Assembly: GCA_002729725.1 (NCBI GenBank)
Contig: PBYS01000054.1
Coordinates: 1-64,000, forward strand
Length of the DNA stretch: 64,000 bases
Direction: 5' to 3'
DNA from: Puniceicoccaceae bacterium
Lineage (GTDB): Bacteria > Verrucomicrobiota > Verrucomicrobiia > Opitutales > Coraliomargaritaceae
Part shown: in pieces, positions 31,909 through 63,034 of the stretch
How positions within the stretch are numbered: position 1 is the stretch's first letter
Layout of the letters: the number at the start of each line of letters is the position of its first letter
The notes under the pieces: generated by a model
Seen by the model: only the letters and a program-made list of their open reading frames with translations
Database searches by the model: none
What the model was told of the DNA's origin: nothing
Position numbers and translations under genes: made by a program

Positions 31909-32697
31909 TCAACCAACAGAAAGAAGGGTTATGCTGAGTCCCCATTCAGACAAATACATAACCTCCTCATGGAGTTCACCCTCTCCATACCGGAACCAAT
32001 CAGACCTATCAGTCTTTCCTTCCAAAAACGGGTCTGCGGCAAAGCCTGCCCTATGAAGTTGAAAAGTATTTGAGTATTCTGGAATTTGATCCACCCACTT
32101 CATTCCCGTGTTCTGCGCCTGATCGGAACAAATGGAGTAATTGATTCTGCTGTCATTTGCAACGATGGCCACGCAAGTTTCACCAGTAAATTCGACATAA
32201 CGAATGACAGCGGACTGGAGGGAGACCTTCCACTCACCGGCCATTTTTGAGATCTCCTTCAGCGACATAAACTCACGTCGATCCAGACGCTTTTCCAGAT
32301 ATTCCGAGGGAAGCAACAGAGCACCGGCGAATGCGTCCGCCTCACGCTCCAACTTATTATCCGAAACGAAGCCTGCGGTTGAACTATGGCTTTCGCCTGA
32401 CAAATAAAGGCTCCGATGGTCTTCCAGAAAGAAATGACCGAGCTCATGCGCGACGGTAAATCGATCACGGTTCGACAGATCCCCGGACACCCGCGTTTTA
32501 TGAAAAAGTATCCAAGGGTCGTCATGCCCGGAGTGGTATTCCAGACGCCCTTCAAAATGCTCTCCGTAAGACGGACTCGGAGCCAAATTGATACGTTCTC
32601 CCTTTGCAATAACCAAGGGATCGATTGGGGCGGTGAGCTGGTCGTGGGCCTCTCTTACTAGCCTCGCCTCTTCTTCAAGTCTCCGATTGATCATCAC
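31909..32697 (-). CDS. ImmA/IrrE family zinc metallopeptidase
   Basis: A 262-residue cytoplasmic protease. HELGH at residues 84-88 supplies the zinc-binding His pair and catalytic Glu; the third ligand region is LEREADAFAGALLLP (about 116-130). ImmA/IrrE proteins cleave repressors: ImmA of ICEBs1 cuts ImmR, IrrE (PprI) cuts DdrO, CapP cuts CapH. The C-terminal 100 residues are a separate domain, possibly a sensor. Its start lies 23 bp inside the preceding acidic-protein gene, and both follow an ECF sigma factor gene. The operon is divergent from ubiquitin-like locus A, which suggests that this protease triggers expression of that locus by destroying a regulator. That is an inference from arrangement. 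Confidence 0.88.
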   Translation of the reverse strand: MMINRRLEEEARLVREAHDQLTAPIDPLVIAKGERINLAPSPSYGEHFEGRLEYHSGHDDPWILFHKTRVSGDLSNRDRFTVAHELGHFFLEDHRSLYLSGESHSSTAGFVSDNKLEREADAFAGALLLPSEYLEKRLDRREFMSLKEISKMAGEWKVSLQSAVIRYVEFTGETCVAIVANDSRINYSICSDQAQNTGMKWVDQIPEYSNTFQLHRAGFAADPFLEGKTDRSDWFRYGEGELHEEVMYLSEWGLSITLLSVG

Positions 32698-33043
32698 GAG
32701 CCTGCTGTAATATGTTTTTCCGCTGCCGGTCTAACTCCGAATTCGTCTCATCATCGAAGCTATCGTTTTCGTTTTTCCGATTCATCGCGAACTTAAGTTC
32801 TTTCTCCGGGGCACCAACAAGCTCATCCAATGTAGTGGAAACAAACGGAACGACATTGCTACTAAACAATTCTCTGGCGAAGGGAAGTCCTTCGAGATCA
32901 CCGGCAAGCGCCTCAGGATTTTCTTCTAGAAAACGATCAATCTCTTCATCGGAAGGCGCGCTTTCATCGAGTGATGGAAAAACACTGGCCATTTCAGCAA
33001 GTATCGCGTTTTCCTCTTCGTGGGTTAAATTTCTATGATGCAT
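32675..33043 (-). CDS. Acidic protein between sigma factor and ImmA protease; candidate regulator
   Basis: A 122-residue strongly acidic, helical protein (LTHEEENAILAEMASVFP, then DEEIDRFLEENPEALAGDLE). No HTH is apparent, so it is not a standard ImmR-type repressor. A good Shine-Dalgarno (GAAAGGA) precedes the ATG. It is translationally linked to the downstream ImmA/IrrE protease by overlap and follows the sigma-factor gene by 29 bp. A protein of this type and place could be an anti-sigma factor or a protease substrate, but the sequence itself shows no recognised domain. Confidence 0.65.
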   Translation of the reverse strand: MHHRNLTHEEENAILAEMASVFPSLDESAPSDEEIDRFLEENPEALAGDLEGLPFARELFSSNVVPFVSTTLDELVGAPEKELKFAMNRKNENDSFDDETNSELDRQRKNILQQARDDQSET

Positions 33044-33072
33044 TTTGTTTCCTTTCTCTCAGGGGCATTAGG

Positions 33073-33702
33073 TTAAATTTTCAAATACTCCCTAAATTTC
33101 TTAAGGACTTCCTCTTTGGCACGTTTCGCACCAGCAAGCGTAACATCGAACCCTGGTCTGTTATTAATCATATCCCGAATATCGCTTGGAGGCAAATTAC
33201 TGCTCCAATCCTCAGCCATGACACGCGCGACTGCTAGCTGCACTCGCTTCAGGCCAGCATCTCGAACAAAAGTCGCAAACTTCGCTCGAATTTCATTCTT
33301 CTCAGCCGTTGTAATGAATCTCGCGGGAGGCAGTGGTTGGTTTTGAACCGCTTGCTGATGCAATCCTTCTTCCTCGCATGTTTCCTTGGTTTTCCTCCAG
33401 CGGGACTCCATTCGTACCAAATCAATTGCCCTAAAACGGGCTATCCTGAAGAGCAATCGATGTACTGCCTCCGGGTTGAAGTCATCCTCAGTAGCAACCT
33501 TCTGAAGTTCCAAAAACGAATTGACGATCACGTCATGAACCTGCTCGTACTCGAAAAATGGGAAATTTCTGCGTATAAAGGACGCTAATCGTGACTTAAA
33601 ATGATCATATAAGTATGCCAGCGCAGCATTTCGGTCTTCTTCGGACTCGCTACACAGAAACAGTTCCGCGTCATCTTGAGAGTTGCAATTGGTCGATAGC
33701 AT
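33073..33702 (-). CDS. ECF-like RNA polymerase sigma factor
   Basis: A 209-residue protein. Residues about 25-105 match sigma-70 region 2: helix ALAYLYDHFKSRLASFIRR, then EQVHDVIVNSFLELQKV, and the -10-binding segment LLFRIARFRAIDLVRMESRW. The C-terminal part (about 130-209) is helical, with a DIRDMINNRPGFDVTLAGAK segment in place of region 4, and is less canonical. ECF factors direct RNA polymerase to a small regulon and are usually held by an anti-sigma. The gene is divergent from the ubiquitin-like locus A with only 114 bp between starts, so locus A is its most likely target. Confidence 0.8.
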   Translation of the reverse strand: MLSTNCNSQDDAELFLCSESEEDRNAALAYLYDHFKSRLASFIRRNFPFFEYEQVHDVIVNSFLELQKVATEDDFNPEAVHRLLFRIARFRAIDLVRMESRWRKTKETCEEEGLHQQAVQNQPLPPARFITTAEKNEIRAKFATFVRDAGLKRVQLAVARVMAEDWSSNLPPSDIRDMINNRPGFDVTLAGAKRAKEEVLKKFREYLKI

Positions 33703-33816
33703 TAAATCACAGGTCTTCGTTTATTAAGTAACTCGTCTGCAAAAGCTTATCGGCCCAAAAAAACTTTATACAATTATTTTTGGTCTCTTTTCAGACTTTG
33801 GAACGAGTTTCTTTAC
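33703..33816. promoter_or_regulatory. Divergent control region between sigma factor and ubiquitin-like locus A
   Basis: 114 bp separate the two ATGs, are AT-rich, and must hold promoters for both directions. A GGAAC element (33800-33804), the common ECF -35 core, lies too close to the locus A ATG to serve it unless an alternative start is used, so I do not assign a precise promoter. No clear inverted repeat was seen. Confidence 0.4.
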
Positions 33817-34515
33817 ATGACACAGTCTAAAACACAATCCGATTCCGCGAGCCCACGCTGGTTCGCCCTTATCAACGACCAGGTGATTACTGCCCCACGG
33901 CAGGAATTACCTGTTTCTCTTCTCAAGACGTTATCCTCTATCCCAGATAATCATTCGTTAATCCGGGATCACAAAAGCCCGAATGATCACATTCTCAAAG
34001 ATGATGGGATCGTAGACCTCTCACTCGGAAACGTATTTTACTCCCGTCCGAGCTGCGACTGTCGGCCTTCGAATCCGTGCTCGACTCCGCCAAAACGGGC
34101 ATTTTCGGTCGATGATAGTTTTGAAATCTCAGCAGTGGAGAAACTCTCCAGAGCAGCCTTCTTCTCACTATTCGACCTCTCTGAGGCTTCAAGCTTGTAT
34201 CGGGATTTCGAATCGCCGGATGACCGGAAGATTTGGCCTGATGATGAAATTCATTTTATCGACGGACCGGTATTCTACACAAAAGCCGCCTGTCCTCAGG
34301 ACGATGTCACTATAACGATAGACGGCAAGGAATACCCGATCAAGTCTGGCCAGAGCACCGTGAAGGCGATTAAGGACATGGCTTCTGTTAAACACGGAGA
34401 CGAACTCGTTCAGATTATCAACGGCGACATCACACCATTGGAAGACGGCGGCTCCGTATGCATTGAGGGCGGAGAAGTGTTTGTAAGCCATCCCAGACAA
34501 GGAGGATCCTCTTGA
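33817..34515 (+). CDS. Multiubiquitin protein: three tandem beta-grasp (ubiquitin-like) domains
   Basis: A 232-residue protein made of three related units: about 14-77 (WFALINDQVITAPRQEL to GNVFYSR), 94-156 (FSVDDSFEISAVEKL to GPVFYTK) and 163-226 (VTITIDGKEYPIKSG to GGEVFVSH). The third has the DGKEY start and GGEVF end of the 'multiubiquitin' family; each unit has a final (V)F-(Y/V)-(S/T) strand. The C-terminus is PRQGGSS: a Gly-Gly pair followed by two residues, as in pro-forms that a peptidase must trim before activation. A linker with Cys80, Cys82 and Cys88 separates units 1 and 2. It overlaps the E2, JAMM and E1 genes that follow, so it is very probably the modifier they process and conjugate. 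Confidence 0.88.
   Translation: MTQSKTQSDSASPRWFALINDQVITAPRQELPVSLLKTLSSIPDNHSLIRDHKSPNDHILKDDGIVDLSLGNVFYSRPSCDCRPSNPCSTPPKRAFSVDDSFEISAVEKLSRAAFFSLFDLSEASSLYRDFESPDDRKIWPDDEIHFIDGPVFYTKAACPQDDVTITIDGKEYPIKSGQSTVKAIKDMASVKHGDELVQIINGDITPLEDGGSVCIEGGEVFVSHPRQGGSS
34501..34506 (+). promoter_or_regulatory. Shine-Dalgarno GGAGGA that selects a TTG start
   Basis: GGAGGA inside the last codons of the multiubiquitin gene (it also encodes the Gly-Gly) lies five bases before TTG at 34512-34514. That TTG overlaps the multiubiquitin stop as TTGA, so the E2 start is set by this site and coupled to termination of the modifier gene. Confidence 0.7.
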
Positions 34516-34853
34516 TTGAGTTCCCTCAAGATCAGATAGCGGAGCTCAAAGCTTTGGTAACCGAGGTCTCGACGGCCACTGAGGGAGGTTTTACCTACTT
34601 CTATCTTCCAAAACTCAGATTGCCTACCGGTTGCATCAGTGAACATGCCGATGCGCTTCTATGCCCTATGCCACGGGACGGTTACGAGTCACGAATGTAT
34701 TTCAGCGAAATCGTCAAACCTCAAGGGTTGAACTGGCATCAAAAGGACATTCGTATTCTTGACCGATCTTGGTTCGCCTTCTCTTGGAAAACAAACCGGA
34801 GCGATATCCGCCTGGCTCAAATGGTCATGGAGTACTTGAGGGCATTTAAATGA
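34512..34853 (+). CDS. E2-like ubiquitin-conjugating enzyme, Prok-E2_E type
   Basis: A 113-residue protein starting at TTG. It has the signature of prokaryotic E2 family E: LRLPTGC (Cys41), ADALLCPMPRDGYESRMYF (Cys51), W-H, then SWFAFSWKTN and a closing helix LAQMVMEYLRAF. Family members are predicted to accept an activated ubiquitin-like protein from the E1 as a thioester. Cys41 or Cys51 would be the active site; which one cannot be told from sequence. It is short compared with eukaryotic E2s (about 150). It sits between modifier and JAMM genes and overlaps both. Confidence 0.85.
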   Translation: MIEFPQDQIAELKALVTEVSTATEGGFTYFYLPKLRLPTGCISEHADALLCPMPRDGYESRMYFSEIVKPQGLNWHQKDIRILDRSWFAFSWKTNRSDIRLAQMVMEYLRAFK

Positions 34854-35350
34854 ACGTGCAAATTCGAGTTCACCAGAATCTATACGAAGAGGCATTCCGA
34901 GATCTGCGTCGCCCACATCCCTTTGCTTATGAGCGGGTCGGGTTCTTATCTAGTTCCACGGTTCAAATAGACCCCGAACATGTCCTTGTCCTTCTGACGC
35001 ATTTTCACTCAATTCCAGACGACCATTACCTTGAAAATCCCGATGTCGGCGCTTGCATTGGCACAGAAGCTATCCGCGCTGCGATGCAGAGGTCGATTGC
35101 ACTCCAGGCTGGCCAGATACATACGCATATCCACGAACATTGGGGGCAGCCACATCCTAGCTCCGATGATCTGGAGGGAGTGCCTCCAATCAATCGTTCA
35201 CTCTCTCTGACGTCTCCAAACCAAACTTCAGGATATCTGATTCTGAGTCATAACTCTGCTTGGGCAGAGCTTAATGTTGCCAAATCCGGCCTTATAACTA
35301 GAGCCGATAAGTTTACAGTTGTTGGCTTCCCATTGCGATTTCTACAATGA
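34850..35350 (+). CDS. JAMM/MPN+ peptidase (deubiquitinase-like), locus A
   Basis: A 166-residue protein with all JAMM residues: Glu28 (FAYERVGFL), His91 and His93 (QIHTHIHEHWG), and Ser104 and Asp107 (HPSSDDLEG). The spacing between the second His and the Ser is slightly longer than usual. JAMM enzymes are zinc proteases that cut isopeptide bonds or trim pro-ubiquitins. Here the likely tasks are removal of the terminal Ser-Ser of the multiubiquitin to expose Gly-Gly, separation of units, and deconjugation. Start codon overlaps the E2 stop (ATGA) and its stop overlaps the E1 start. Confidence 0.88.
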   Translation: MNVQIRVHQNLYEEAFRDLRRPHPFAYERVGFLSSSTVQIDPEHVLVLLTHFHSIPDDHYLENPDVGACIGTEAIRAAMQRSIALQAGQIHTHIHEHWGQPHPSSDDLEGVPPINRSLSLTSPNQTSGYLILSHNSAWAELNVAKSGLITRADKFTVVGFPLRFLQ

Positions 35351-36165
35351 AAACGAATAAAGCAGATGACGCATTCTCTCGCCAGTCTTTTCTGGGCGTG
35401 AACTCACAATCCATCATTGAACGAACCGTGGTCGGCATAGTTGGTTTGGGTGGTGGTGGCTCTCATATCGCCCAACAGCTCGCTCACCTGGGATTCTTGA
35501 ACTACGTAATTTACGACGGTGACCTATTCGAAGAAAGCAACCTGAATCGCCTCGTGGGAGCGACCGAAGAAGATATTAAGAACAAAAAACCTAAGATTGA
35601 TATTGCCCGGCGACTCATCTCAAGGATACGCCCCCACGCGAAAATTCATGCAACAATGAGCAAGTGGCAAACGTCTCCTGGTCGGCTCAAAAGTTGTGAT
35701 ATTATTTTTGGTTGTGTCGATGGATTCGATCAACGCAGACAACTTGAAGCAATGGCTCGCCGATACCTAATACCACTAATTGACATCGGCATGGATGTCC
35801 ACCAGCCGGAAGAAGGCTCGCCGACTATTTCAGGCCAGGTCATTCTTTCCATGCCCGGACACTCTTGCATGCAGTGTATGGGATTCCTAAACGAAAACAA
35901 TTTGGCCAAGGAGGCTGGAAATTATGGCGATGCTGGCATCAATCCACAGGTAGTGTGGTCGAATGGCCTTCTTGCCTCTGCAGCAGTCGGTCTAGCTGTT
36001 GATCTTATCACTGATTGGTCTAAATCTTTAAGGAGTCCAATTTATCTTTCTTACCGAGGGGATTCTCCAACATTGACTGAAGACCCAATATTCGCTTATT
36101 CTAAAAAAGTATGTAAGCACTATCCACTAAAGGAAATCGGTGCTCCAACTTTCACCAAACTATAA
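35347..36165 (+). CDS. E1-like ThiF-family activating enzyme, locus A
   Basis: A 272-residue protein. The Rossmann nucleotide loop is VGLGGGGSH (about 32-40); the acidic strand IYDGDLFEESNLNR (55-68) carries the Asn-x-x-Arg conserved in E1/MoeB/ThiF; GCVDGFDQRRQ (122-132) is the adenylate-binding Asp region. One CxxC (C174, C177) is present; the usual second CxxC is not seen, only Cys256, so zinc binding may be incomplete. No clear catalytic Cys lies in the crossover region. The enzyme should adenylate the C-terminal Gly of the multiubiquitin. It overlaps the JAMM gene by 4 bp. Confidence 0.88.
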   Translation: MKTNKADDAFSRQSFLGVNSQSIIERTVVGIVGLGGGGSHIAQQLAHLGFLNYVIYDGDLFEESNLNRLVGATEEDIKNKKPKIDIARRLISRIRPHAKIHATMSKWQTSPGRLKSCDIIFGCVDGFDQRRQLEAMARRYLIPLIDIGMDVHQPEEGSPTISGQVILSMPGHSCMQCMGFLNENNLAKEAGNYGDAGINPQVVWSNGLLASAAVGLAVDLITDWSKSLRSPIYLSYRGDSPTLTEDPIFAYSKKVCKHYPLKEIGAPTFTKL

Positions 36166-36186
36166 CTACCAACATAAGGAAATAAC

Positions 36187-36357
36187 ATGGGAGACGATCC
36201 AAACAAAAAAGAACACGACGGCAAACTGGTCAGCCAACAAGATCATGAAGTTGCATACCTAAAACACAAATTCCCAAAGAGGACCGAAACGGAGATTCGA
36301 AACGCTATACGAATGTATGGCCCTAGTCGAAGCGCGGTCGAACGACGCCTAAGCTAG
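36187..36357 (+). CDS. DUF3606-like small protein
   Basis: A 56-residue protein with a good Shine-Dalgarno (AAGGAA) before the ATG, 21 bp after the E1 gene. The sequence DDPNKKEHDGKLVSQQDHEV, then AYLKHKF and a helix ending GPSRSAVERRL, matches the layout of DUF3606 proteins (a disordered DDP-x-K start, E-V-x-Y-x-x-K-x-F, and a final amphipathic helix). Role unknown in the family. Its closeness suggests it is the last gene of locus A. Confidence 0.65.
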   Translation: MGDDPNKKEHDGKLVSQQDHEVAYLKHKFPKRTETEIRNAIRMYGPSRSAVERRLS

Positions 36358-37127: not shown

Positions 37128-37455
37128 GGTGAGGCGAGCGGAGATAAATCCGGTAGGCACGGCGCATAGGATTTTTAGGGGATTGTGCGCGGTCGTAATA
37201 GAGCGGAGGTTCCTGCTCTGTTTCGGGGTCGTAGGAGAGGGAGAGTATGCGCACGGCCATTAGCGTTCGTGTTCCGTTTCGATTACACAACCGCATCAAT
37301 CGCGAAAGGCTCAAAGGATACTGGCAACTGGCTTTGGTTTGGTAGAGTTCGTCGTAATACAGGCGAACCTTTGCAAGAACAAGATTGAGCATTTGCTGCT
37401 GCCTGGCATCGATGGTCTCGGTCATTTCCGAGCCAACCCAATGACGCACGTTCAT
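37117..37455 (-). CDS. Small helical protein coupled to the HerA-like ATPase
   Basis: A 112-residue basic protein whose ATG overlaps the stop of the HerA-like gene (ATGA), so the two are probably translated together. It contains a helix with QQQMLNLVLAKVRLYYDELY and a middle segment SLSRLMRLCNRNGTRTLMAV that could be an HTH-like fold. It may be a partner or DNA-contact subunit of the ATPase, but that is an inference from coupling alone. Confidence 0.5.
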   Translation of the reverse strand: MNVRHWVGSEMTETIDARQQQMLNLVLAKVRLYYDELYQTKASCQYPLSLSRLMRLCNRNGTRTLMAVRILSLSYDPETEQEPPLYYDRAQSPKNPMRRAYRIYLRSPHRDK

Positions 37456-38777
37456 TTCATCAAATCCTCATCTTTAACGAGTCCAATCTTGATCGGAACA
37501 AGCGGGAAGCGGACATGACAGGCTGGAATACGGTTCTTCACCTTCACAATACCCTCTCCTACTTTGAGATAATCCAAGTAAACTTCATCTCCTCGTTTCA
37601 AAAAGAGCGCCTGCCTGGCAGCCATAATATCGGCCTCGTGAGTCAGCGACATCAGGATCAGCGTTCCGGTGTTTCCGAGTAGGTAAATGGGCAGTCTCGA
37701 AGCATGTTGCGTGATCGCGATCAGACCTTGGCCGAAGGATCGAATCTCACGATAGATATTCTCAAGACCACTATTCGGGTCGTCGTGTCTCGCGGGAAAG
37801 ATGTTATGCGCCTCTTCCAACAGGAGGACGTGGCGTAACCCCGGAGTCTCCCCCTGCCCCAATCGATACAAATGAATCCAGCGCAGAATTACTTCGGAGA
37901 GAAAAGTCCGAACAGCCTTGGGTAGCTCCATATCCAATTCGAGCACGACGGAACTTTGCAAAAGCGACTCAAGCGGCAACGGTTGCCTCATATTGAACGC
38001 TTCAGCAGCAGGTCCAAAAGTAAAGGTTCTAAGGATTCTAAGGCAACTGTCGCGCCACAGAGCGCGCCTGCCACCATACCGGGAACGATCGACCCGATTA
38101 CGGATATCATAAAAGTTCGGGAAGTCGTGGGCATTATTATCATAAAACCCTCTGGCTGCAAATTCCTTGTCAGCATGCTCGATCAAGACATCAGCAACAC
38201 CTTGGCCGGAGGCGTGGGTTTTCTCCAGCACCTCTGCCAGAATTTGAATCCATGTTTGTGGATGCACTTTTGGTGGAGGGCGTAAAGGATTCCAATCAAA
38301 GGGAGCCGCCGGACGTCCCACGGTATAGACCTTGAGATCTTTCATCGCGGGCGCACTTCTCAAGTTGCGATAGCTCCGTTTCCAATCGATCACCATGAAA
38401 GGGATCTTTTTTCGATGCAACTGGCGCAGAATATTAAATGCGCAATTGGTTTTCCCTGCGCCACTGGTGGCAAAAATGCCAATATGTCGGGTAAATTCTT
38501 GGGTTCTCAAATGCAGAGCGCTTGGTTCCCTGCCGGGATAGAGGACTTCACCGAGGCGGATGTCTCCAAGCTCGCTACCGCTTGAAGGGGTCAAAAAAAC
38601 GTCTCCGTCTGTGACATTCTGCTTAAGATGGGTGACACCCATCATCCGGATCATATGAGCCGATTCCATTTTATGCACAGGTGATTCGGAAAGCTCATAC
38701 TGAATCCAAAGGGCATCTGCCGAATCCCCAATAAGTGGCTTCAATCTCTGACAGATACTCCGCAGCTCTTCACTCAT
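37452..38777 (-). CDS. HerA/DUF87-like ATPase
   Basis: A 441-residue P-loop ATPase. An N-terminal barrel-like region precedes Walker A ATSGAGKT (103-110); FMVIDWKRSYRNL follows, and Walker B is LLLEEAH (318-324), then an arginine-finger-like segment REIRSFGQGLIAITQ. Domain order and the D-W-K-x-x-Y motif fit the HerA/FtsK-like DUF87 family, hexameric pumps that move DNA or help end processing; archaeal viruses, plasmids and conjugation systems carry similar ones. It overlaps the D12 methylase by 8 bp and a small helical protein by 4 bp. A nuclease NurA-type partner is not seen, so a role in DNA transfer of the element is as likely as one in repair. Confidence 0.82.
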   Translation of the reverse strand: MSEELRSICQRLKPLIGDSADALWIQYELSESPVHKMESAHMIRMMGVTHLKQNVTDGDVFLTPSSGSELGDIRLGEVLYPGREPSALHLRTQEFTRHIGIFATSGAGKTNCAFNILRQLHRKKIPFMVIDWKRSYRNLRSAPAMKDLKVYTVGRPAAPFDWNPLRPPPKVHPQTWIQILAEVLEKTHASGQGVADVLIEHADKEFAARGFYDNNAHDFPNFYDIRNRVDRSRYGGRRALWRDSCLRILRTFTFGPAAEAFNMRQPLPLESLLQSSVVLELDMELPKAVRTFLSEVILRWIHLYRLGQGETPGLRHVLLLEEAHNIFPARHDDPNSGLENIYREIRSFGQGLIAITQHASRLPIYLLGNTGTLILMSLTHEADIMAARQALFLKRGDEVYLDYLKVGEGIVKVKNRIPACHVRFPLVPIKIGLVKDEDLMK

Positions 38778-39624
38778 TAAGAACCTCGTTCAAATTATGA
38801 ATCAGCACCTCTTTACGCTCGGTGTTTCGTGTCCCCGCTGACGTTTTTGAATTCCCCAGAGAGTATTTGGTCTGAATACTTTCAATCGTGAATATCTTGA
38901 AGATTTCTCGCACCTCCGGAGTATCGTTAAGCGACAATATGAATTTCCCTTCGATACTTTTCAGGGTATCCCTCAGACGGATAAAATCATCCGCAGCAAA
39001 GGAAACCGCATAAAAGTCGGCATTCCAGTACGGAGGATCGACATAGAAGAATGTTTTTGGTGAATCATATCTTAGGATACATTCGCACGCATCCAGATGT
39101 TCAATGGTCGTTCGGGCCATTCGCTGGTGTGTCTCGCTCAGGGCTTCTTCCACTTTATGGTAGTTCAGCGAGTTGGGCCGCACACAACTTGTGCCAAAGG
39201 TTCGATCTTTAGTTTTTCCACCATAGCCCATTCGTTGCAGTTGGTAGTATCGAACAGCCCGCTGCACATCGGTTAGCAGCCTCGGATCTTTTCTCTTTTC
39301 CTGATCAAAAATTTCACGCGAGACGACTCCGAACTGAATACATCTCAAAAACTCCGGTAGGTGATGTCGAATCACTCGCCAAAAGGCTACCAGTTCACCG
39401 TCAAGGTCATTCAGGATTTCCACCCGGCTCGGGGGCTTGGTAAAATAGACCCAGCCTCCTCCAGCAAAGGGCTCGACGTAACATTGGTGCTGCGGGATTC
39501 GCTCGACGATCTGTGCGGCCAGTCTGGATTTTCCACCTAAATAGCCCAAAGGACTCTTCAGGGGTTTCGATTCTGTTGTATTTGGGCCGTTACTTTGGTT
39601 TTGTTGCGTGGTTTCAGGGGTCAT
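38770..39624 (-). CDS. D12-class DNA adenine N6-methyltransferase
   Basis: About 284 residues from the ATG at 39622-39624; a GTG at 39693 would add 23 residues of unlikely sequence. Near the N-terminus PLGYLGGKSRLAAQI and CYVEPFAGGGWVYF are the SAM-binding motifs, and FFYVDPPYWNADFYAV supplies the DPPY catalytic motif of N6-adenine methylases of the D12 class (Dam, DpnM). It methylates adenine in a short DNA site, not known here. No matching restriction enzyme is adjacent, so this is a solitary methylase, possibly shielding the element or regulating it. It is coupled to the HerA-like ATPase and divergent from a winged-helix regulator. Confidence 0.88.
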   Translation of the reverse strand: MTPETTQQNQSNGPNTTESKPLKSPLGYLGGKSRLAAQIVERIPQHQCYVEPFAGGGWVYFTKPPSRVEILNDLDGELVAFWRVIRHHLPEFLRCIQFGVVSREIFDQEKRKDPRLLTDVQRAVRYYQLQRMGYGGKTKDRTFGTSCVRPNSLNYHKVEEALSETHQRMARTTIEHLDACECILRYDSPKTFFYVDPPYWNADFYAVSFAADDFIRLRDTLKSIEGKFILSLNDTPEVREIFKIFTIESIQTKYSLGNSKTSAGTRNTERKEVLIHNLNEVLNE

Positions 39625-39642
39625 CGTGAAAATATCAAAGCA

Positions 39643-39663
39643 TGTTACCGCGCTTGTGTAACA
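39643..39663. promoter_or_regulatory. Inverted repeat TGTTAC-N9-GTAACA, candidate operator
   Basis: A perfect 6-bp inverted repeat with a 9-bp spacer lies 19 bp before the methylase start and 139 bp before the winged-helix gene read the other way. Its symmetry and location fit a dimer-binding operator for that regulator. Only the symmetry is observed; binding is inferred. Confidence 0.35.
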
Positions 39664-39801
39664 ACGCTTCGTATCACTTTTCAATTTAGACACTTGCTTA
39701 AAAACCTAGCTCCAAGTTGCTGGGATATTGAGGTAATCAATCAGTTTTCACCCTACCGATTCAGGGGCAACTACTTCCTAAAAGGTGCAGTCCTTCTCTG
39801 C

Positions 39802-52656: not shown

Positions 52657-53469
52657 CTACCAAGCTAAAGCTTCAGGAGCTTGTGAAAATAAACTATCCA
52701 ACACGGGATATAAACGATGCTGCCTCTGCATTTCCAGCCAAACGGTTCTATGCCCTAAATTTCTTAGTTCTTGCTGCCGTAAATTCAGCAGTAACTGGTC
52801 AGCTCCATTAGCCTTTTCTTCGATGTATTCTCGTAATCTGGAGCGATAACTTCCAAATGCGGTACGGCGAGAATCAACTAAATAATCCCGATGATTAAGC
52901 CGAAGAACTTTAATCGTATATTCCGCACGCAGCTCATTTTCTCTAGAAAGGCCTTCCATCGGCAAGAATACGAACGTATTCGCGATATCAAGCCACAGAA
53001 AGCTCAAGGGATCCTCAAGACGGGGATTTATTAAGGCTGGTTGGCCAGCGATTGGCGGCAACACGGGGGCATTTCGATGTCGCGTGACATCGACAACTTG
53101 AGCCGAAGGAATACTCTTAACGACCGCATACTTATTATTCTTGGGCCCATTACACGGACCGCATGCATATAAGTAGTTTTTCCACGAAAACACCGCTTCG
53201 GGATACAAATCTTTAGGTGCGATATGCTCTACTTCGTCCGCCACAGAATCTTCACAATAGCCGCAGCGTTTATGCCCGTGGCACATCTTTGTCAGAACTT
53301 CCCGAACATTGATAAATGTAGAATTGCGCTTGTTATTTCTGCTACCAAACAGTCTCTTACCCTCGTTGACACGTGTCTCGTAGTCAGAAATGGAATCAAT
53401 TTCAACCTGCCATTGACTCAGATCAGTCGCAGCCGAAGCATCCAAAGGAAGTGATGGTAGCTTAATCAC
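52657..53469 (-). CDS. ptuB: Septu PtuB-like HNH endonuclease
   Basis: A 270-residue HNH nuclease. The core is CGYCEDSVADEVEHIAPKDL, then AVFSWKNYLYACGPCNGPKN: CxxC, the catalytic His in the V-E-H-I-x-P strand, and the C-x-x-C-N half of the zinc site. The layout matches the TIGR02646/PtuB group. It lies 19 bp after an ABC-type ATPase gene of PtuA kind, and the pair forms a Septu anti-phage system in which PtuA controls DNA cleavage by PtuB. No reverse transcriptase or retron RNA was seen nearby. Confidence 0.82.
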   Translation of the reverse strand: MIKLPSLPLDASAATDLSQWQVEIDSISDYETRVNEGKRLFGSRNNKRNSTFINVREVLTKMCHGHKRCGYCEDSVADEVEHIAPKDLYPEAVFSWKNYLYACGPCNGPKNNKYAVVKSIPSAQVVDVTRHRNAPVLPPIAGQPALINPRLEDPLSFLWLDIANTFVFLPMEGLSRENELRAEYTIKVLRLNHRDYLVDSRRTAFGSYRSRLREYIEEKANGADQLLLNLRQQELRNLGHRTVWLEMQRQHRLYPVLDSLFSQAPEALAW

Positions 53470-53488
53470 AAACTATACTCCAAATCGG

Positions 53489-54751
53489 CTACATTGAAGC
53501 GGGAAATAAAGCTTGTAGCCTCTCTCTCACTCTCTGTTCCTCTTCGTTCAAACTTGAAGACAGTGCCTTTCTGTTCAATTCGGAAAGCCTCCGCTGCTTT
53601 TTCTGTGCCGACTCTGATCGACTTACATCTTCTCCAAAAAGGTCAGTCCCGTAGGCATCAAGTACACTTCCAAATACGAGGCGTTCCTTCTCGATCCCTT
53701 CAACCATTCGCGCGACTTCATCAGATCCAGGAGTTGGCAGTCTAAATATTGACCCCTTCTCGGCAGCATGACAGACTAGTGGGCTGTGAGAGGTCACAAT
53801 AAATTGTATTTTCGGGAAATGCTTAGTTAACCAAAAACCGATACGACGCTGCCAAGTAGGATGCAAATGTGCATCAATCTCATCAATCAGAACTACGCCA
53901 GTATGGCCGACCGTAATCAGACCAGATTCAGAAACTTTAAACAACAGAGAACCGGGCCATGTCATCACCATCTGACGCAGTAACTCAAAGCACAAGCTGA
54001 GTATAGAACGAAATCCATCCCCTAATGAATCAACCGATACGGTAATCCCATTTCCATCGCGAAAATTAACACCCTTTGAATCGACGCTATCAATTGTCAC
54101 TCCATGCGGGAGAAAGCCCTCTTGATTGACAAACTCAATAAGATTATCAAGCAATTTGCCGCTACGGTAACTATTATCAAGTTGCTCGAACCTAAGTTGA
54201 CCGAGCCAGTCCAAGCACTCAGATAAAGCCACATCCTCTCCGAAAACCGACAAATGACGAGCTAAACGAGGTTGAGAGTAGAAGAGCTTTTCTGTATCTT
54301 TATTACCTCCAGTAAAACGTCGAAAGGGTCCAAATGATGCGCCAAACCATCCTGGCTTATCACTCCAGATATTACGACTTGTTACGTTCTGCAACTTACA
54401 TTCCTTCAACTCAACTCGGGTTGAACCGCGCGTAAATCTAACTCCAGCTCCCAGATAGTAATTAGTCGTCTGCTTACCCTTCCCTGACCATTTGTCTTCA
54501 GCATGACCATCTACACTTAACCTGATCAGACCTTCTTGCGCATCTTCAAACAACCACGTGTCCCAATTTTGACGAAGAGCCTCGGCAATTGTATTTCCGA
54601 CTAAAGCCAATGCCACGGATCTTAACACTGTTGATTTACCTGAACCATTGTCACCGATAATAACATGCCAACCAGCTCGACTAGAAGTGCATGTCCACTT
54701 TAGATGCTTAATTGCCCTAATATTTTTAATTTCTACGGAATAAATATGCAT
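53489..54751 (-). CDS. ptuA: Septu PtuA-like ABC ATPase
   Basis: A 420-residue AAA/ABC ATPase of the OLD/RecF-like kind. Walker A is IIGDNGSGKST (31-41) after MHIYSVEIKNIRAIKHLKW, an N-terminal SMC-like start; Walker B is VLIDEIDAHLHP, and SHSPLVCHAAEKGSIFRLP is the D-loop/His region. PtuA binds nucleotide, forms a ring-like complex and holds PtuB inactive until infection. The order PtuA then PtuB on the same strand matches known Septu loci. Confidence 0.82.
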   Translation of the reverse strand: MHIYSVEIKNIRAIKHLKWTCTSSRAGWHVIIGDNGSGKSTVLRSVALALVGNTIAEALRQNWDTWLFEDAQEGLIRLSVDGHAEDKWSGKGKQTTNYYLGAGVRFTRGSTRVELKECKLQNVTSRNIWSDKPGWFGASFGPFRRFTGGNKDTEKLFYSQPRLARHLSVFGEDVALSECLDWLGQLRFEQLDNSYRSGKLLDNLIEFVNQEGFLPHGVTIDSVDSKGVNFRDGNGITVSVDSLGDGFRSILSLCFELLRQMVMTWPGSLLFKVSESGLITVGHTGVVLIDEIDAHLHPTWQRRIGFWLTKHFPKIQFIVTSHSPLVCHAAEKGSIFRLPTPGSDEVARMVEGIEKERLVFGSVLDAYGTDLFGEDVSRSESAQKKQRRLSELNRKALSSSLNEEEQRVRERLQALFPASM

Positions 54752-60148: not shown

Positions 60149-61114
60149 ATGACATTAACCAGCCCCTCAAACTTACGTATCATGAAACAACCAGGACTCA
60201 TCTCACTCGTCGCGTTTAACAAAGAGATAAAAAAAATCGCTGAAAGCGCGGCCAGCAGCCCCGACAAAGAAATCGGCGGTTGGCTCTTCGGATTCTACAC
60301 ACAGGGCAGTATTCCAGTCATCATGCATGCCTCGTTAGCGTCGGAAAATTCGCTACGCACACCCACGAACTTCCAGGAAACAGTTCAACATCTGGAAGGA
60401 AGTGCTAGACTCATCTACGAAAGCTATCGATTCGGAGTAATCGGGCGCTGGCACAGCCACCACCACATCGGACTGACTACACCGAGCGGCGGAGATCAGC
60501 GGACTGGTAATGAGTTCGCTCGGAAGAATGACATCGAGACTTTCGTAGAAATCATCATAAACTTGGAGGGTTCCAAAGAGTCACCAACCGTTCGGATTCA
60601 TCCTTACGCCTACCAGAACAAAAAAACCGTGGGCATGGTCTTTGAGACCATCGAGGGTGATAGTCCAATCAACGCAGCCCTCGAAGACACGATTCTTTGC
60701 CAGAATGTTATTCGTCCAAGAATTTCACTCCCTTCGGAGAACATTTTTTGGCCAGAGCATCCTAAGCCAGTGACGCCCCCGCCTGGATCACTAATTGAGT
60801 CGATTAATTCAATTCCAGAGCAGATACGTCAAAAACTCGAAGTCAGCTACGACTCTGAAATTACAACTGTAACGCTGCCAGTTTCCTTAGATCAGCGCGC
60901 CGTTATTTCGTTCGCTTACACAAACGACGATTACGTGCTGCTAGAGGCCAGCATCCGTGACACCGACAACACTACTTTTAATGCCACAGATTTCCTGGCA
61001 GGTCTCGGCACCGAACCTCTCTCCAACCTTTTCCTGATTATGTTGCACCATGCACTCATCAATCAGGAACCGCCACAACTTCAACTCACTAATGGAGGTT
61101 TCAACGATGAATGA
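60149..61114 (+). CDS. JAMM/MPN+ peptidase with C-terminal extension, locus B
   Basis: A 321-residue protein. Residues about 15-165 form the JAMM domain: Glu41 (DKEIGGWLFG), His102 and His104 (RWHSHHHIGL), Ser113 and Asp116 (TPSGGDQRT). This is a complete zinc-peptidase motif, as in deubiquitinases and pro-ubiquitin trimming enzymes. A further domain follows (about 215-320; IPEQIRQKLEVSYDSEITTV, then strands and a last helix) that I do not recognise; it could be the docking surface for the modifier or for the E2. The start ATG 60149 is supported by an AAGGA site; ATG 60182 is possible. The next gene overlaps by 8 bp. Confidence 0.88.
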   Translation: MTLTSPSNLRIMKQPGLISLVAFNKEIKKIAESAASSPDKEIGGWLFGFYTQGSIPVIMHASLASENSLRTPTNFQETVQHLEGSARLIYESYRFGVIGRWHSHHHIGLTTPSGGDQRTGNEFARKNDIETFVEIIINLEGSKESPTVRIHPYAYQNKKTVGMVFETIEGDSPINAALEDTILCQNVIRPRISLPSENIFWPEHPKPVTPPPGSLIESINSIPEQIRQKLEVSYDSEITTVTLPVSLDQRAVISFAYTNDDYVLLEASIRDTDNTTFNATDFLAGLGTEPLSNLFLIMLHHALINQEPPQLQLTNGGFNDE

Positions 61115-61550
61115 CTACACAAAGGCATATATCGATTTCAATCGGAAGCTGATCAAAGAAGAATTTCCTTGGTTTGATTACCATGAGTTCTCCGAATACG
61201 GGGCAATGTTCACCGGCGAGATCTGGGATTCCGATCGTTCAAAGAAGGCAATCCTAAGAATCGTCTGCGACAACGGGTTTCCAGACAGCAAACCGAACCT
61301 GTCCATCGCTGAACCAAAAATTCTACACCGCTTTGAAGGTTGCCCGCTCAACTTACTCGGATTGTCTCACGATTTTCACTGCCTGGAAGCCAATGAAGTC
61401 GGAGAAGTTCGCATCTGTCATACTGCCTCCTGGGACGCCTCCATCACGCTACTTGAACCCATCAGCAAAGCCTATCTCTGGTGGAACGCTTATGTGCTCC
61501 ATTTGCAAACCGGCAAATCAATCGACTCGTATTTCAACCCTGAAGATTAA
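61107..61550 (+). CDS. E2-like ubiquitin-conjugating enzyme, locus B
   Basis: A 147-residue protein from ATG 61107, with GGAGG at 61094-61098. FPDSKPNLSIAEP matches the E2 'YP-x-x-x-P' strand turn; the active-site region is GEVRICHTASWDASITL with Cys104 as the predicted catalytic Cys, followed by the helix SKAYLWWNAYVLHLQTGK. This matches the UBC fold of bacterial E2s such as those in Bil and CBASS operons (short (I/L)C-x-(H/Y)-x-x-x-W-D-x-S-x-x-L pattern). It should accept the activated modifier from the E1 downstream. Confidence 0.85.
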   Translation: MNDYTKAYIDFNRKLIKEEFPWFDYHEFSEYGAMFTGEIWDSDRSKKAILRIVCDNGFPDSKPNLSIAEPKILHRFEGCPLNLLGLSHDFHCLEANEVGEVRICHTASWDASITLLEPISKAYLWWNAYVLHLQTGKSIDSYFNPED

Positions 61551-61569
61551 ACCACAACAACACAAAACC

Positions 61570-61758
61570 ATGAGCAATAATAACGACATCGCCAACACCA
61601 TGCGGGCACTTTCACAACGGCCCCAAACACCTCCCAAGCACAGCTTGGTTCTCGATAAAGGGACTAAACGGCTCAAGGCCGTGCCGTCCGACAGCCCCTC
61701 CGCCAAAAACCAACTGGCAATCACACCCGAGGATCTTCGGGTATCACTCACAACCTAA
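61570..61758 (+). CDS. Small protein between E2 and E1 of locus B
   Basis: A 62-residue protein, MSNNNDIANTMRALSQRPQT, then PPKHSLVLDKGTKRLKAVPS and a hydrophobic end ITPEDLRVSLTT. It lies 19 bp after the E2 and 13 bp before the E1, and is the only gene between the two. It is too short for a full beta-grasp fold and has no C-terminal Gly. It may be an adaptor, or an unusual modifier. Confidence 0.5.
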   Translation: MSNNNDIANTMRALSQRPQTPPKHSLVLDKGTKRLKAVPSDSPSAKNQLAITPEDLRVSLTT

Positions 61759-61771
61759 CTCAGTAAACACT

Positions 61772-63034
61772 ATGAAACATGCACCTGTAATCGTATGCGC
61801 CGCAGAGTTGTTGGAGTCCGCCCTCAGGGCGGGCTCCCTGGTGGAGCACTCTTTCTCAGTCGTCGACGGACACGTCTACAACGGCCTAATCAGAAATCAA
61901 AGCTCTCAAATCGCCCGAGGCGTTATTTCGAGTTCGGCAACTGAAACTCCGGCAGGAGCGACTGTTCAGGTCATTGTCAGCCAAGACAGTTCGGGCAAGC
62001 TCGTTGTGAACGGAAGTGTCCGCCAAAACGGGAACTGGATCGAAAGTAAGTTGGCAATCATCCCCTTGCAGGAGCAATTGTTCTCGCGCTTTAAAGGTCT
62101 GCACGAGACCGATGATGTAGCTGATAAAACCGTCCTGATCATTGCGGCTGGCTCTGTCGGATCCTCGATTATCGATTATCTAAGCAAACTGGGGATCATG
62201 TATATTACTATCATCGATCCGGAAACCCTCGGAGTGGAAAACATCGTCCGCCATGTTGCAGGACTTGATTCTGTCGGACGCTTGAAGGTCGATTGGGCGA
62301 AGGATCATATACTCTCAAAGAACCCATATGCGAGGGTTGAAACGCACCCGATCAAAGTCGAAGCGAACACCATACCGCTTATTGAACAGCTGATTAAACA
62401 GGCCGATCTGGTAATTTGCACCATCGATAACCGGGAAGGGAAACAACTCGTGAACCGTATTGCGACGCATGCAGGCAAAACCGTCATTTACTCGGGAGCT
62501 TTTCGTCGTGCATACGGAGCCCAGGTGTTGCGCTGCGATCCAAATGATCCGGACTCTTTTTGCTATAATTGTTTCGTCCGCGCCCTGCCGGAACGAGACT
62601 TGGATCAGGAAGTTTCCGATCTCGCCCAGGCACGGGCGTTGGGAATCCACTACTCAGACCGCCCGGCACCAATTCAACCCGGACTGGGTCTTGATATTGA
62701 GCCGACGGCGTTCATGACCGCAAAACTGGCACTGCATGAATTACTAAGAGGCAAAGAGACTCCTTTAAGTTCTTTGAACGAAGATCTCGTCGCGCACTGG
62801 TATATGTGGCTTAACCGCCGCGAACCCGGCACTGACTTCGAGAATCTACAACCACTTGGTTTCGAGACCGACGACCTGCGTATTCTCCGGTGGTACGGCG
62901 TCGAATTCCATAGGGACGAGCATTGTCCCGTATGCGGCAACGGCCTACAGACCCTCATCACTCACACGGATTCGAACCAACCGGGCAATGAACATGGATC
63001 ACATTCATCGGGAGCTGGAACTTCGCTCTCCTAA
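61772..63034 (+). CDS. E1-like ThiF-family activating enzyme with N-terminal domain, locus B
   Basis: A 420-residue protein. An N-terminal domain of about 110 residues (strand-rich, SFSVVDGHVYNGLIR) precedes the Rossmann core; such E1-N domains occur in bacterial ubiquitin-like operons. The nucleotide loop is IIAAGSVGSS (123-132), the Asn-x-x-Arg pair is VENIVRHVAG (155-164), and the adenylate Asp region is ICTIDNREGK. Two CxxC pairs, C264-C267 (FCYNCF) and C385-C388 (HCPVCG), form a complete zinc site, unlike the locus A E1. A Ser/Gly-rich tail follows (GAGTSLS). It should adenylate the modifier of this locus. Confidence 0.88.
   Translation: MKHAPVIVCAAELLESALRAGSLVEHSFSVVDGHVYNGLIRNQSSQIARGVISSSATETPAGATVQVIVSQDSSGKLVVNGSVRQNGNWIESKLAIIPLQEQLFSRFKGLHETDDVADKTVLIIAAGSVGSSIIDYLSKLGIMYITIIDPETLGVENIVRHVAGLDSVGRLKVDWAKDHILSKNPYARVETHPIKVEANTIPLIEQLIKQADLVICTIDNREGKQLVNRIATHAGKTVIYSGAFRRAYGAQVLRCDPNDPDSFCYNCFVRALPERDLDQEVSDLAQARALGIHYSDRPAPIQPGLGLDIEPTAFMTAKLALHELLRGKETPLSSLNEDLVAHWYMWLNRREPGTDFENLQPLGFETDDLRILRWYGVEFHRDEHCPVCGNGLQTLITHTDSNQPGNEHGSHSSGAGTSLS

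What the first reader, a model, noticed from the sequence alone, without database searches (positions are those of the whole stretch)
33817..36357. Complete multiubiquitin conjugation operon (modifier, E2, JAMM, E1, DUF3606)
Four genes overlap by 3-4 bp each and encode a triple beta-grasp protein, a family E E2, a JAMM peptidase and an E1. The modifier ends in Gly-Gly-Ser-Ser, which predicts trimming by the JAMM enzyme. This class was predicted by comparative genomics of bacterial ubiquitin-like systems; I know of little on its target or role, and the coupling to the regulator below makes it a good candidate for a regulated defence or stress system.
Basis: partly seen in the sequence, partly recalled or inferred. 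Interest (0 to 1): 0.85.

Follow-up and report, generated by a model that had tools for sequence, protein, structure and literature searches.

The report
Ubiquitin-like operon with sigma-factor switch
A bacterium carries a complete four-gene set for attaching a three-part ubiquitin-like tag to proteins, of the recently described 'Bub' type, and next to it sits an unusual switch, a sigma factor with a small partner and a DNA-damage-type protease, that also recurs beside other bacterial immune operons and may turn them on.

Summary
Four genes at 33817-36165 overlap by exactly 4 bp each and encode a three-beta-grasp modifier, an E2-fold protein, a JAMM protease and an E1. The same gene order is in about 85 loci from eight phyla.
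The class is no longer just predicted. It is a Bub operon: the modelled E2 matches Citrobacter BubB far above anything else (Z 12.0, next 7.3), the modifier matches multi-ubiquitin filament proteins and BubA, and JAMM and E1 match the halves of BubCD.
Corrections: DUF3606 (36187-36357) is in no relative. The conserved tail is Gly-x-Ser-Ser; GGSS in only 31 of 84. The E2 family has no conserved cysteine but an invariant serine (S91, 87/87), so thioester chemistry is unlikely.
The less expected part is the divergent trio at 31909-33702: an ECF-sigma-like protein, a small acidic protein and a CapP-like M78 protease. It replaces the usual CapH-CapP pair in ten of the Bub loci, and also sits beside a BilABCD operon and a CBASS operon. 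I propose that damage-activated CapP destroys a small anti-sigma factor and frees sigma. This is inferred, not shown.

The parts
33817..34515 (+). Modifier (BubA-like): three beta-grasp units, about residues 14-79, 93-157 and 162-227; tail QGGSS, consensus G-x-S-S
   Evidence: AlphaFold2 pLDDT 91.4, three beta-grasp repeats; best PDB matches are multi-ubiquitin filament proteins 9d59/9d5a/9d5b and BubA 9ea8; profile hits E 2e-36; tail tally
34512..34853 (+). E2-fold protein (BubB-like), TTG start; no family-wide Cys; invariant Y58, N74, W75, W87, S91
   Evidence: AlphaFold2 pLDDT 94.3; 9eae_C BubB Z 12.0, 111 residues, rmsd 2.9; 87-locus conservation
34850..35350 (+). JAMM protease (BubC-like): E28, H93-x-H95-x8-S104-x2-D107
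   Evidence: Catalytic residues conserved in 86-88 of 87-88 loci; weak profile match to the N-terminal part of BubCD, with D107 opposite D104, the residue changed in BubCD D104A
35347..36165 (+). E1 adenylating enzyme (BubD-like), single ThiF domain with invariant C174/C177 ... C256/H258 (likely zinc site)
   Evidence: ThiF E 1e-28; closest PDB sequence is BubCD, profile E 8e-24; conservation
33703..33816 (.). 114-bp divergent promoter region; weak inverted element AAGTAACTCGT (33726-33736) / ACGAGTTTCTT (33803-33813)
   Evidence: not significant here (33 of 300 shuffles as good); strong equivalents in L040/L042, L047 and L049
33073..33702 (-). ECF-sigma-factor-like protein, 209 aa
   Evidence: NCBIfam sigma models, best E 1.5e-6; relatives in the same position at 10 other Bub loci
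32675..33043 (-). Small acidic protein, 122 aa, proposed anti-sigma factor and protease substrate
   Evidence: Always between sigma and protease; alignment A10
31909..32697 (-). CapP-like M78 (ImmA/IrrE) metalloprotease, HELGH ... EREAD motif
   Evidence: PADLOC capP E 7e-46 over nearly its full length; Pfam PF06114 E 5e-13; alignment A9
36187..36357 (+). DUF3606 protein, 56 aa: adjacent, not part of the conserved operon
   Evidence: Pfam E 3e-8; found in no other locus

Best explanation
This is a Bub-type ubiquitin-like conjugation operon under a protease-released sigma-factor switch. Conjugation: the JAMM protein trims the three-domain modifier after its conserved glycine, the E1 adenylates that glycine, and the E2-fold protein passes the modifier to targets through a serine ester rather than a cysteine thioester; JAMM can also remove it. 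Control: at rest the small acidic protein holds the ECF-like sigma factor inactive. DNA damage or infection makes single-stranded DNA, which activates the CapP-like protease; it cuts the small protein, and the freed sigma transcribes the Bub operon and its own operon from the shared promoter region. Shown here: the gene set, folds, conserved residues, conserved gene order, and recurrence of the trio beside three or more kinds of immune operon. Inferred: oxyester chemistry, the protease substrate, the damage signal, activation by sigma, and a defence role.
For: Gene order modifier-E2-JAMM-E1 in about 85 loci across Verrucomicrobia, Planctomycetes, Bacteroidota, Acidobacteria, Cyanobacteria/Melainabacteria, Proteobacteria and others; JAMM and E1 fused in many, as in BubCD. 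E2 model to BubB Z 12.0. E1 closest to BubCD. Modifier to multi-ubiquitin proteins and BubA. No family-wide Cys in E2 (15 of 87 have none) and S91 invariant in 87/87; in E1 only CxxC...CxH cysteines are invariant. M78 protease beside about 50 of 88 Bub loci, mostly divergent and with a CapH-type HTH. Sigma-small-M78 trio at 10 Bub loci, sigma alone at one more. The same trio beside BilABCD (L151: BilA-D E 2e-42 to 8e-131) and beside a CBASS cyclase plus 2TM effector (L031). At least six switches between sigma and other regulators on the E1 tree. Precedents: ssDNA activates CapP and PprI proteases (PMC10904395); protease cleavage of the sigma inhibitor Csx30 frees CASP-sigma in type III-E CRISPR (PMC10028731).
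Against: No biochemistry or expression data. The sigma-like proteins are divergent (L042, L040 and L069 match no NCBIfam sigma model at E<0.01), and -35/-10 boxes of ordinary ECF type were not found. The window's own inverted element is not significant. The E2 is only 9% identical to BubB, so serine chemistry is carried over from a distant relative whose paper I could not read. Bub operons have not been shown to protect against phage (PMC13373217).
Confidence: 0.72

Rival explanations
1. Same Bub operon, but the sigma-like protein is the repressor or the protease substrate itself (a CapH replacement): the M78 protease cuts it to derepress the operon, and the small protein is a cofactor or adaptor.
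For: It occupies exactly the position of CapH, the first divergent gene beside CapP. CapP and PprI relatives are known to cut DNA-binding repressors (PMC10904395). Inverted intergenic elements could be operators.
Against: The fold family is sigma (regions 2 and 4), not HTH/XRE. The intergenic elements at L047, L049 and L040/42 are asymmetric and separated by 54-117 bp, one facing each gene, unlike the close dyads (10-20 bp gap) seen at several CapH loci. A third gene would be unnecessary.
Confidence: 0.2
2. The E2-fold protein is non-catalytic (UEV-like): it only binds modifier or target, and the E1 transfers the adenylated modifier directly.
For: No conserved Cys; UEV domains (TSG101, Vps23) are among the next-best fold matches.
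Against: Strictly invariant polar residues (N74, S91) point to an active site; the best match is BubB, the E2 of a conjugating system; the gene is present in nearly every complete locus.
Confidence: 0.15
3. A Bil-type anti-phage system (phage-structure tagging by BilABCD).
For: Same four functions; the modifier is distantly related to M. brachiatum Ubl-BilA 8u38.
Against: No PADLOC Bil model matches any of the four window proteins, whereas the same search recovers a true Bil operon in L151 with all four at E 2e-42 or better. No separate Cys domain in the 272-aa E1 and no conserved E2 Cys.
Confidence: 0.04
4. A sulfur-carrier (ThiS/MoaD-ThiF/MoeB-JAMM) system for cofactor synthesis rather than protein conjugation.
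For: E1 is ThiF/MoeB-like with a CxxC...CxH metal site; JAMM proteins accompany some sulfur-carrier operons (PMC1779556).
Against: Multi-domain modifier, dedicated E2-fold protein, no rhodanese or metabolic gene, regulators shared with immune operons.
Confidence: 0.03

Closest known systems
Bub (bacterial ubiquitination-like) operons, e.g. Citrobacter BubA/BubB/BubCD (PDB 9ea4, 9ea5, 9ea8, 9eae, 9eav)
   Same: Same four functions; E2 fold match Z 12.0; JAMM-E1 pair corresponds to BubCD; modifier related to BubA; association with CapH+CapP noted for Bub (PMC13373217)
   Different: Sequences very distant (E2 9% identity); the E1 here keeps a CxxC...CxH site where the aligned part of Citrobacter BubD has none; JAMM and E1 are separate genes; regulator is sigma-small-CapP
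Bacterial multi-ubiquitin proteins (PDB 9cd2, 9d59, 9d5a, 9d5b; Pfam PF14452)
   Same: Three tandem beta-grasp units; best structural matches of the modifier model
   Different: The window protein is below Pfam's cut-off (E 0.038); filament or calcium binding not tested
BilABCD
   Same: Modifier, E2, JAMM, E1 in one operon; one Bil operon (L151) carries the same sigma-small-CapP trio
   Different: No Bil family model matches; no conserved E2 cysteine
CapH-CapP damage-responsive controllers of CBASS and Bub
   Same: CapP-like protease, divergent position, same target operons
   Different: The HTH repressor CapH is replaced by a sigma-like protein plus a small protein
Craspase / Csx30 / CASP-sigma (type III-E CRISPR)
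   Same: Protease, small inhibitor and ECF sigma controlling defence genes (proposed logic)
   Different: Unrelated protease (caspase-like TPR-CHAT versus M78), RNA-guided trigger; homology of Csx30 to the small protein not tested

Membership tests
Bub operon | E2-fold protein of the BubB type | tested here: met
   Model pLDDT 94; 9eae_C Z 12.0, rmsd 2.9, 111 residues, next match Z 7.3
Bub operon | E1 related to BubD | tested here: met
   BubCD is the closest PDB sequence, E 8e-24 against 3e-17 for the next
Bub operon | JAMM related to BubC, fused or adjacent to E1 | tested here: met
   Profile matches BubCD 75-161 at E 0.01, catalytic Asp aligned with D104; fused to E1 in many relatives. Sequence similarity alone is weak
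Bub operon | Beta-grasp modifier related to BubA | tested here: met
   Three beta-grasps; BubA E 7e-4 and Z 8.5 for the third unit
Bub operon | Conjugation through non-cysteine (serine, oxyester) intermediates | tested here: inconclusive
   Conservation fits: no family-wide Cys, S91 in 87/87. Chemistry not testable here; the Bub mechanism is my recollection of Ye et al., paper not held
Bil system | Match to BilA-D family models | tested here: not met
   No Bil hit at E<0.1; positive control L151 hits all four
Type II CBASS (Cap2/Cap3) | CD-NTase plus E1-E2 fusion | tested here: not met
   E1 and E2 are separate genes; none of the neighbouring proteins scanned matched a cyclase model
Multiubiquitin PF14452 | Score above Pfam cut-off | tested here: not met
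   14.6 bits against 24.5; Bradyrhizobium and Methylocystis relatives pass with three repeats
CapH-CapP controller | CapP-like M78 protease | tested here: met
   PADLOC capP E 7e-46, positions 4-240 of 242
CapH-CapP controller | CapH HTH repressor next to the protease | tested here: not met
   The CapH-type profile finds no ORF in the window; the neighbours are sigma-like and small acidic
ECF sigma factor | Sigma-70 region 2/4 family match | tested here: inconclusive
   Best E 1.5e-6, far below curated cut-offs; some relatives match better (L049 5e-9, L047 3e-9, L064 2e-7), others not at all

The most novel reading that the evidence does not exclude
[quoted passage not shown] It has been swapped repeatedly onto Bub, Bil and CBASS operons, so these pathways are activated positively by sigma rather than derepressed.
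Probability: 0.55. Interest if true: 0.68.

Novelty: new variant of a known kind. Interest (0 to 1): 0.55.

Why it matters
The conjugation operon adds an Opitutales member of a known class, and its relatives define a branch with an E1 metal site and a cysteine-free E2 that would test how general serine-based ubiquitin-like transfer is. The sigma-small-CapP trio, if it works as proposed, would show that bacterial immune operons of unrelated kinds share a positive, proteolytically triggered transcription switch. It would also be a genomic marker for finding immune operons and could help reveal what induces Bub systems, whose role is still unknown.

Tried and rejected
Pfam, PADLOC and NCBIfam on the window proteins alone gave little for modifier, E2 and JAMM, so identity rests on family alignments and models. 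A first genome scan with the single E1 sequence found nothing; the alignment-based scan gave 80 loci. Only two viral contigs carry a relative of the E1, one of them with the whole operon, and none carries the sigma. No sigma relative on plasmids by tblastn. Search for ordinary ECF promoter boxes (GGAAC-N15-18-GTC/CGT/TCT) found none facing the operons convincingly. The DUF3606 gene as a fifth component was rejected: absent from all relatives. E2 'family E' label: no Pfam match. Bil membership rejected by family models. PDB search with the E2 family alignment found no sequence relative; only the fold comparison connected it to BubB. Key Bub papers (PMC12885553, PMC12145246, PMC11476048) are not held, so statements about their content are marked as recollection or taken from PMC13373217. 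Counting of regulators by motif undercounts; HMM counts were preferred.
Full report
CHECK OF THE OBSERVATION. The four ORFs are at the stated coordinates and overlap by 4 bp at each junction: modifier 33817-34515, E2 34512-34853 (TTG), JAMM 34850-35350, E1 35347-36165. DUF3606 (36187-36357) follows after 21 bp. Single-sequence family searches recognise only the E1 (ThiF) and DUF3606 with confidence; the modifier reaches Multi_ubiq at E 0.038 and E2 and JAMM match nothing.

RELATIVES. tblastn against plasmids found the E1 and JAMM side by side on plasmids of Bradyrhizobium, Methylovirgula, Sphingobium, Rhizobium, Methylocystis and Bosea; these six annotated regions read modifier-E2-JAMM-E1, the modifier annotated as 'multiubiquitin domain-containing protein'. 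An alignment-based genome scan gave 80 more loci, of which nearly all carry the full order; JAMM and E1 are one polypeptide in many, and the modifier has one, two or three beta-grasp units by length. Nearest relatives are Opitutaceae and Opitutae MAGs (L040, L041, L042; E1 64-67% identical), so the host is probably an Opitutales bacterium; only one of 43 genomes of its family, its own, has the modifier. Patchy, partly plasmid-borne distribution points to horizontal spread.

STRUCTURE. The E2 model (63-sequence alignment, pLDDT 94.3) has the E2 order helix, sheet, helix; its best PDB match is chain C of Citrobacter BubCD(D104A)-BubB, Z 12.0 over 111 residues, against 7.3 and lower for UEV and E2 proteins. 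The modifier model (pLDDT 91.4) shows three beta-grasp repeats; the best matches are the Citrobacter and Methylobacterium multi-ubiquitin filaments and BubA. The E1 profile is closest to BubCD (E 8e-24). The JAMM profile finds the N-terminal half of BubCD weakly (E 0.01), placing D107 on D104, the residue mutated in the solved complex. Together these place the operon in the Bub class. A 2026 paper (PMC13373217) reports 544 Bub operons and states that Bub operons have not been shown to protect against phage.

CONSERVED RESIDUES. JAMM: E28, H93, H95 and D107 are invariant and S104 is present in 86 of 88. E2: Y58, N74, W75, W87 and S91 invariant in 87 of 87; no Cys column exceeds 53 of 87, and 15 sequences have no Cys at all. 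E1: the only invariant Cys are C174, C177 and C256 (with H258), the pattern of a metal site; C117 is absent in 9 of 88. So neither E1 nor E2 offers a conserved nucleophilic cysteine apart from the likely metal ligands. I recall that the Bub mechanism paper (Ye et al. 2026, not held) reports ester rather than thioester intermediates; the invariant S91 is the natural candidate here, but this is inference. Modifier tails: GGSS 31, GQSS 12, GSSS 8, GASS 7, GGAS 6, GHSS 5 of 84. The conserved unit is therefore one Gly then x-Ser-Ser, and the mature end is predicted at G229. The crystallised BubA fragment is named 155-229, which is suggestive only, since numbering need not correspond.

THE REGULATOR. 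Divergent from the modifier lie three genes: 33073-33702 (sigma-like, NCBIfam ECF sigma models to 1.5e-6), 32675-33043 (122 aa, acidic) and 31909-32697 (M78 protease, full-length PADLOC capP match E 7e-46). In the other Bub loci the same position usually holds an HTH protein plus an M78 protease (CapH+CapP type); M78 proteins were detected at about 50 of 88 loci. At L040, L042, L047, L048, L049, L064, L068, L069 and L073, as in the window, a sigma-like protein, a small protein and an M78 protease stand there instead (small and M78 apparently fused in L049; the L048 protease was read by translation); L041 has a sigma-like gene without the protease. These loci come from Verrucomicrobia, Planctomycetes, Bacteroidota, Acidobacteria and an actinomycete MAG. 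On an E1 tree the sigma type needs at least six changes, so the module has been exchanged several times (quick tree, moderate support).

The trio is not tied to Bub. In G467 (L151) it is divergent from a genuine BilABCD operon (PADLOC E 2e-42, 2e-47, 3e-56, 8e-131) and in G179 (L031) from a CBASS cyclase (E 5e-63) with a 2TM effector (E 9e-66). In G641 (L152) sigma and a small-type N-terminus fused to another domain stand beside a further modifier and JAB-E1 operon. L030 and L032 also have the trio; their target genes are unclear.

CIS ELEMENTS. The region between sigma and modifier holds one sequence in inverted orientation, one copy facing each gene: ACTACTTGGGACTG (L040, L042), TACGAC[T/A]GTCACTTAACC (L049), ACTTAACAGGAA with flanking matches (L047); none of 300 dinucleotide shuffles does as well at these loci. 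In the window the equivalent (AAGTAACTCGT / AAGAAACTCGT) is matched by 33 of 300 shuffles and is not significant; L064, L069 and others are also weak. Several CapH-type loci instead show close dyads, with gaps of 12-14 bp, such as TGCAAAGAATGTCAA. Asymmetric, gene-facing copies suit sigma promoters for both divergent operons, but standard ECF boxes were not recognised.

MECHANISM PROPOSED. ssDNA activates PprI and CapP proteases to cut DNA-binding repressors (PMC10904395). In type III-E CRISPR a protease cuts Csx30, an inhibitor of an ECF sigma, to switch on transcription (PMC10028731). The trio has the parts for a combination of the two: CapP-like protease, small protein as inhibitor, sigma as activator. 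Which protein is cut, and whether sigma activates, is untested. The main rival is that the sigma-like protein is itself the cleaved repressor.

SURROUNDINGS. The window also has an integrase, RadC, a D12 methylase and HerA-like ATPase pair, a Septu pair (PtuA E 2e-153, PtuB E 7e-114) and a second JAB plus E1 pair at 60149-63034, so a defence-rich, mobile setting is likely.

VERDICT. The sigma-factor controller is a new variant, found in no paper that my searches of the library returned; that library is limited to open-licence papers.

Noticed in passing
window 52657-54751 (-): Septu-type pair: PtuB (52657-53469, PADLOC E 7e-114) and PtuA (53489-54751, E 2e-153).
   Followed up: partly
window 60149-63034 (+): A second ubiquitin-related set: a JAB-domain protein (60149-61114), an unassigned 166-aa protein (61050-61550) and a ThiF/E1 of 420 aa (61772-63034) matching CBASS E1-E2 models.
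   Followed up: partly
window 37452-39693 (-): HerA/mad8-like ATPase overlapping a D12-class adenine methylase by 8 bp; may be a separate defence or mobile-element unit.
   Followed up: partly
L151 6028-10858: BilABCD operon divergent from a sigma-small-CapP trio in a related genome (G467).
   Followed up: yes
L031 6101-13492: CBASS cyclase, 2TM effector and a large putative NTPase divergent from the same trio (G179), with type I restriction genes on the other side.
   Followed up: partly
L152 3644-8192: Long modifier (378 aa), JAB-E1 fusion and sigma plus a 287-aa protein whose N-terminus resembles the small protein and whose C-terminus looks like a Panacea-type domain (by eye; no Pfam hit).
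   Followed up: partly
L007 7040-10419 and L009 7065-10432: An ATP-binding protein plus S8 family peptidase pair directly downstream of the Bub operon on two alphaproteobacterial plasmids; L050 has a subtilisin-like gene upstream.
   Followed up: no
window 36187-36357 (+): DUF3606 protein just downstream of E1; its three-helix-like pattern recalls UBA-type domains, but this is only an impression.
   Followed up: no
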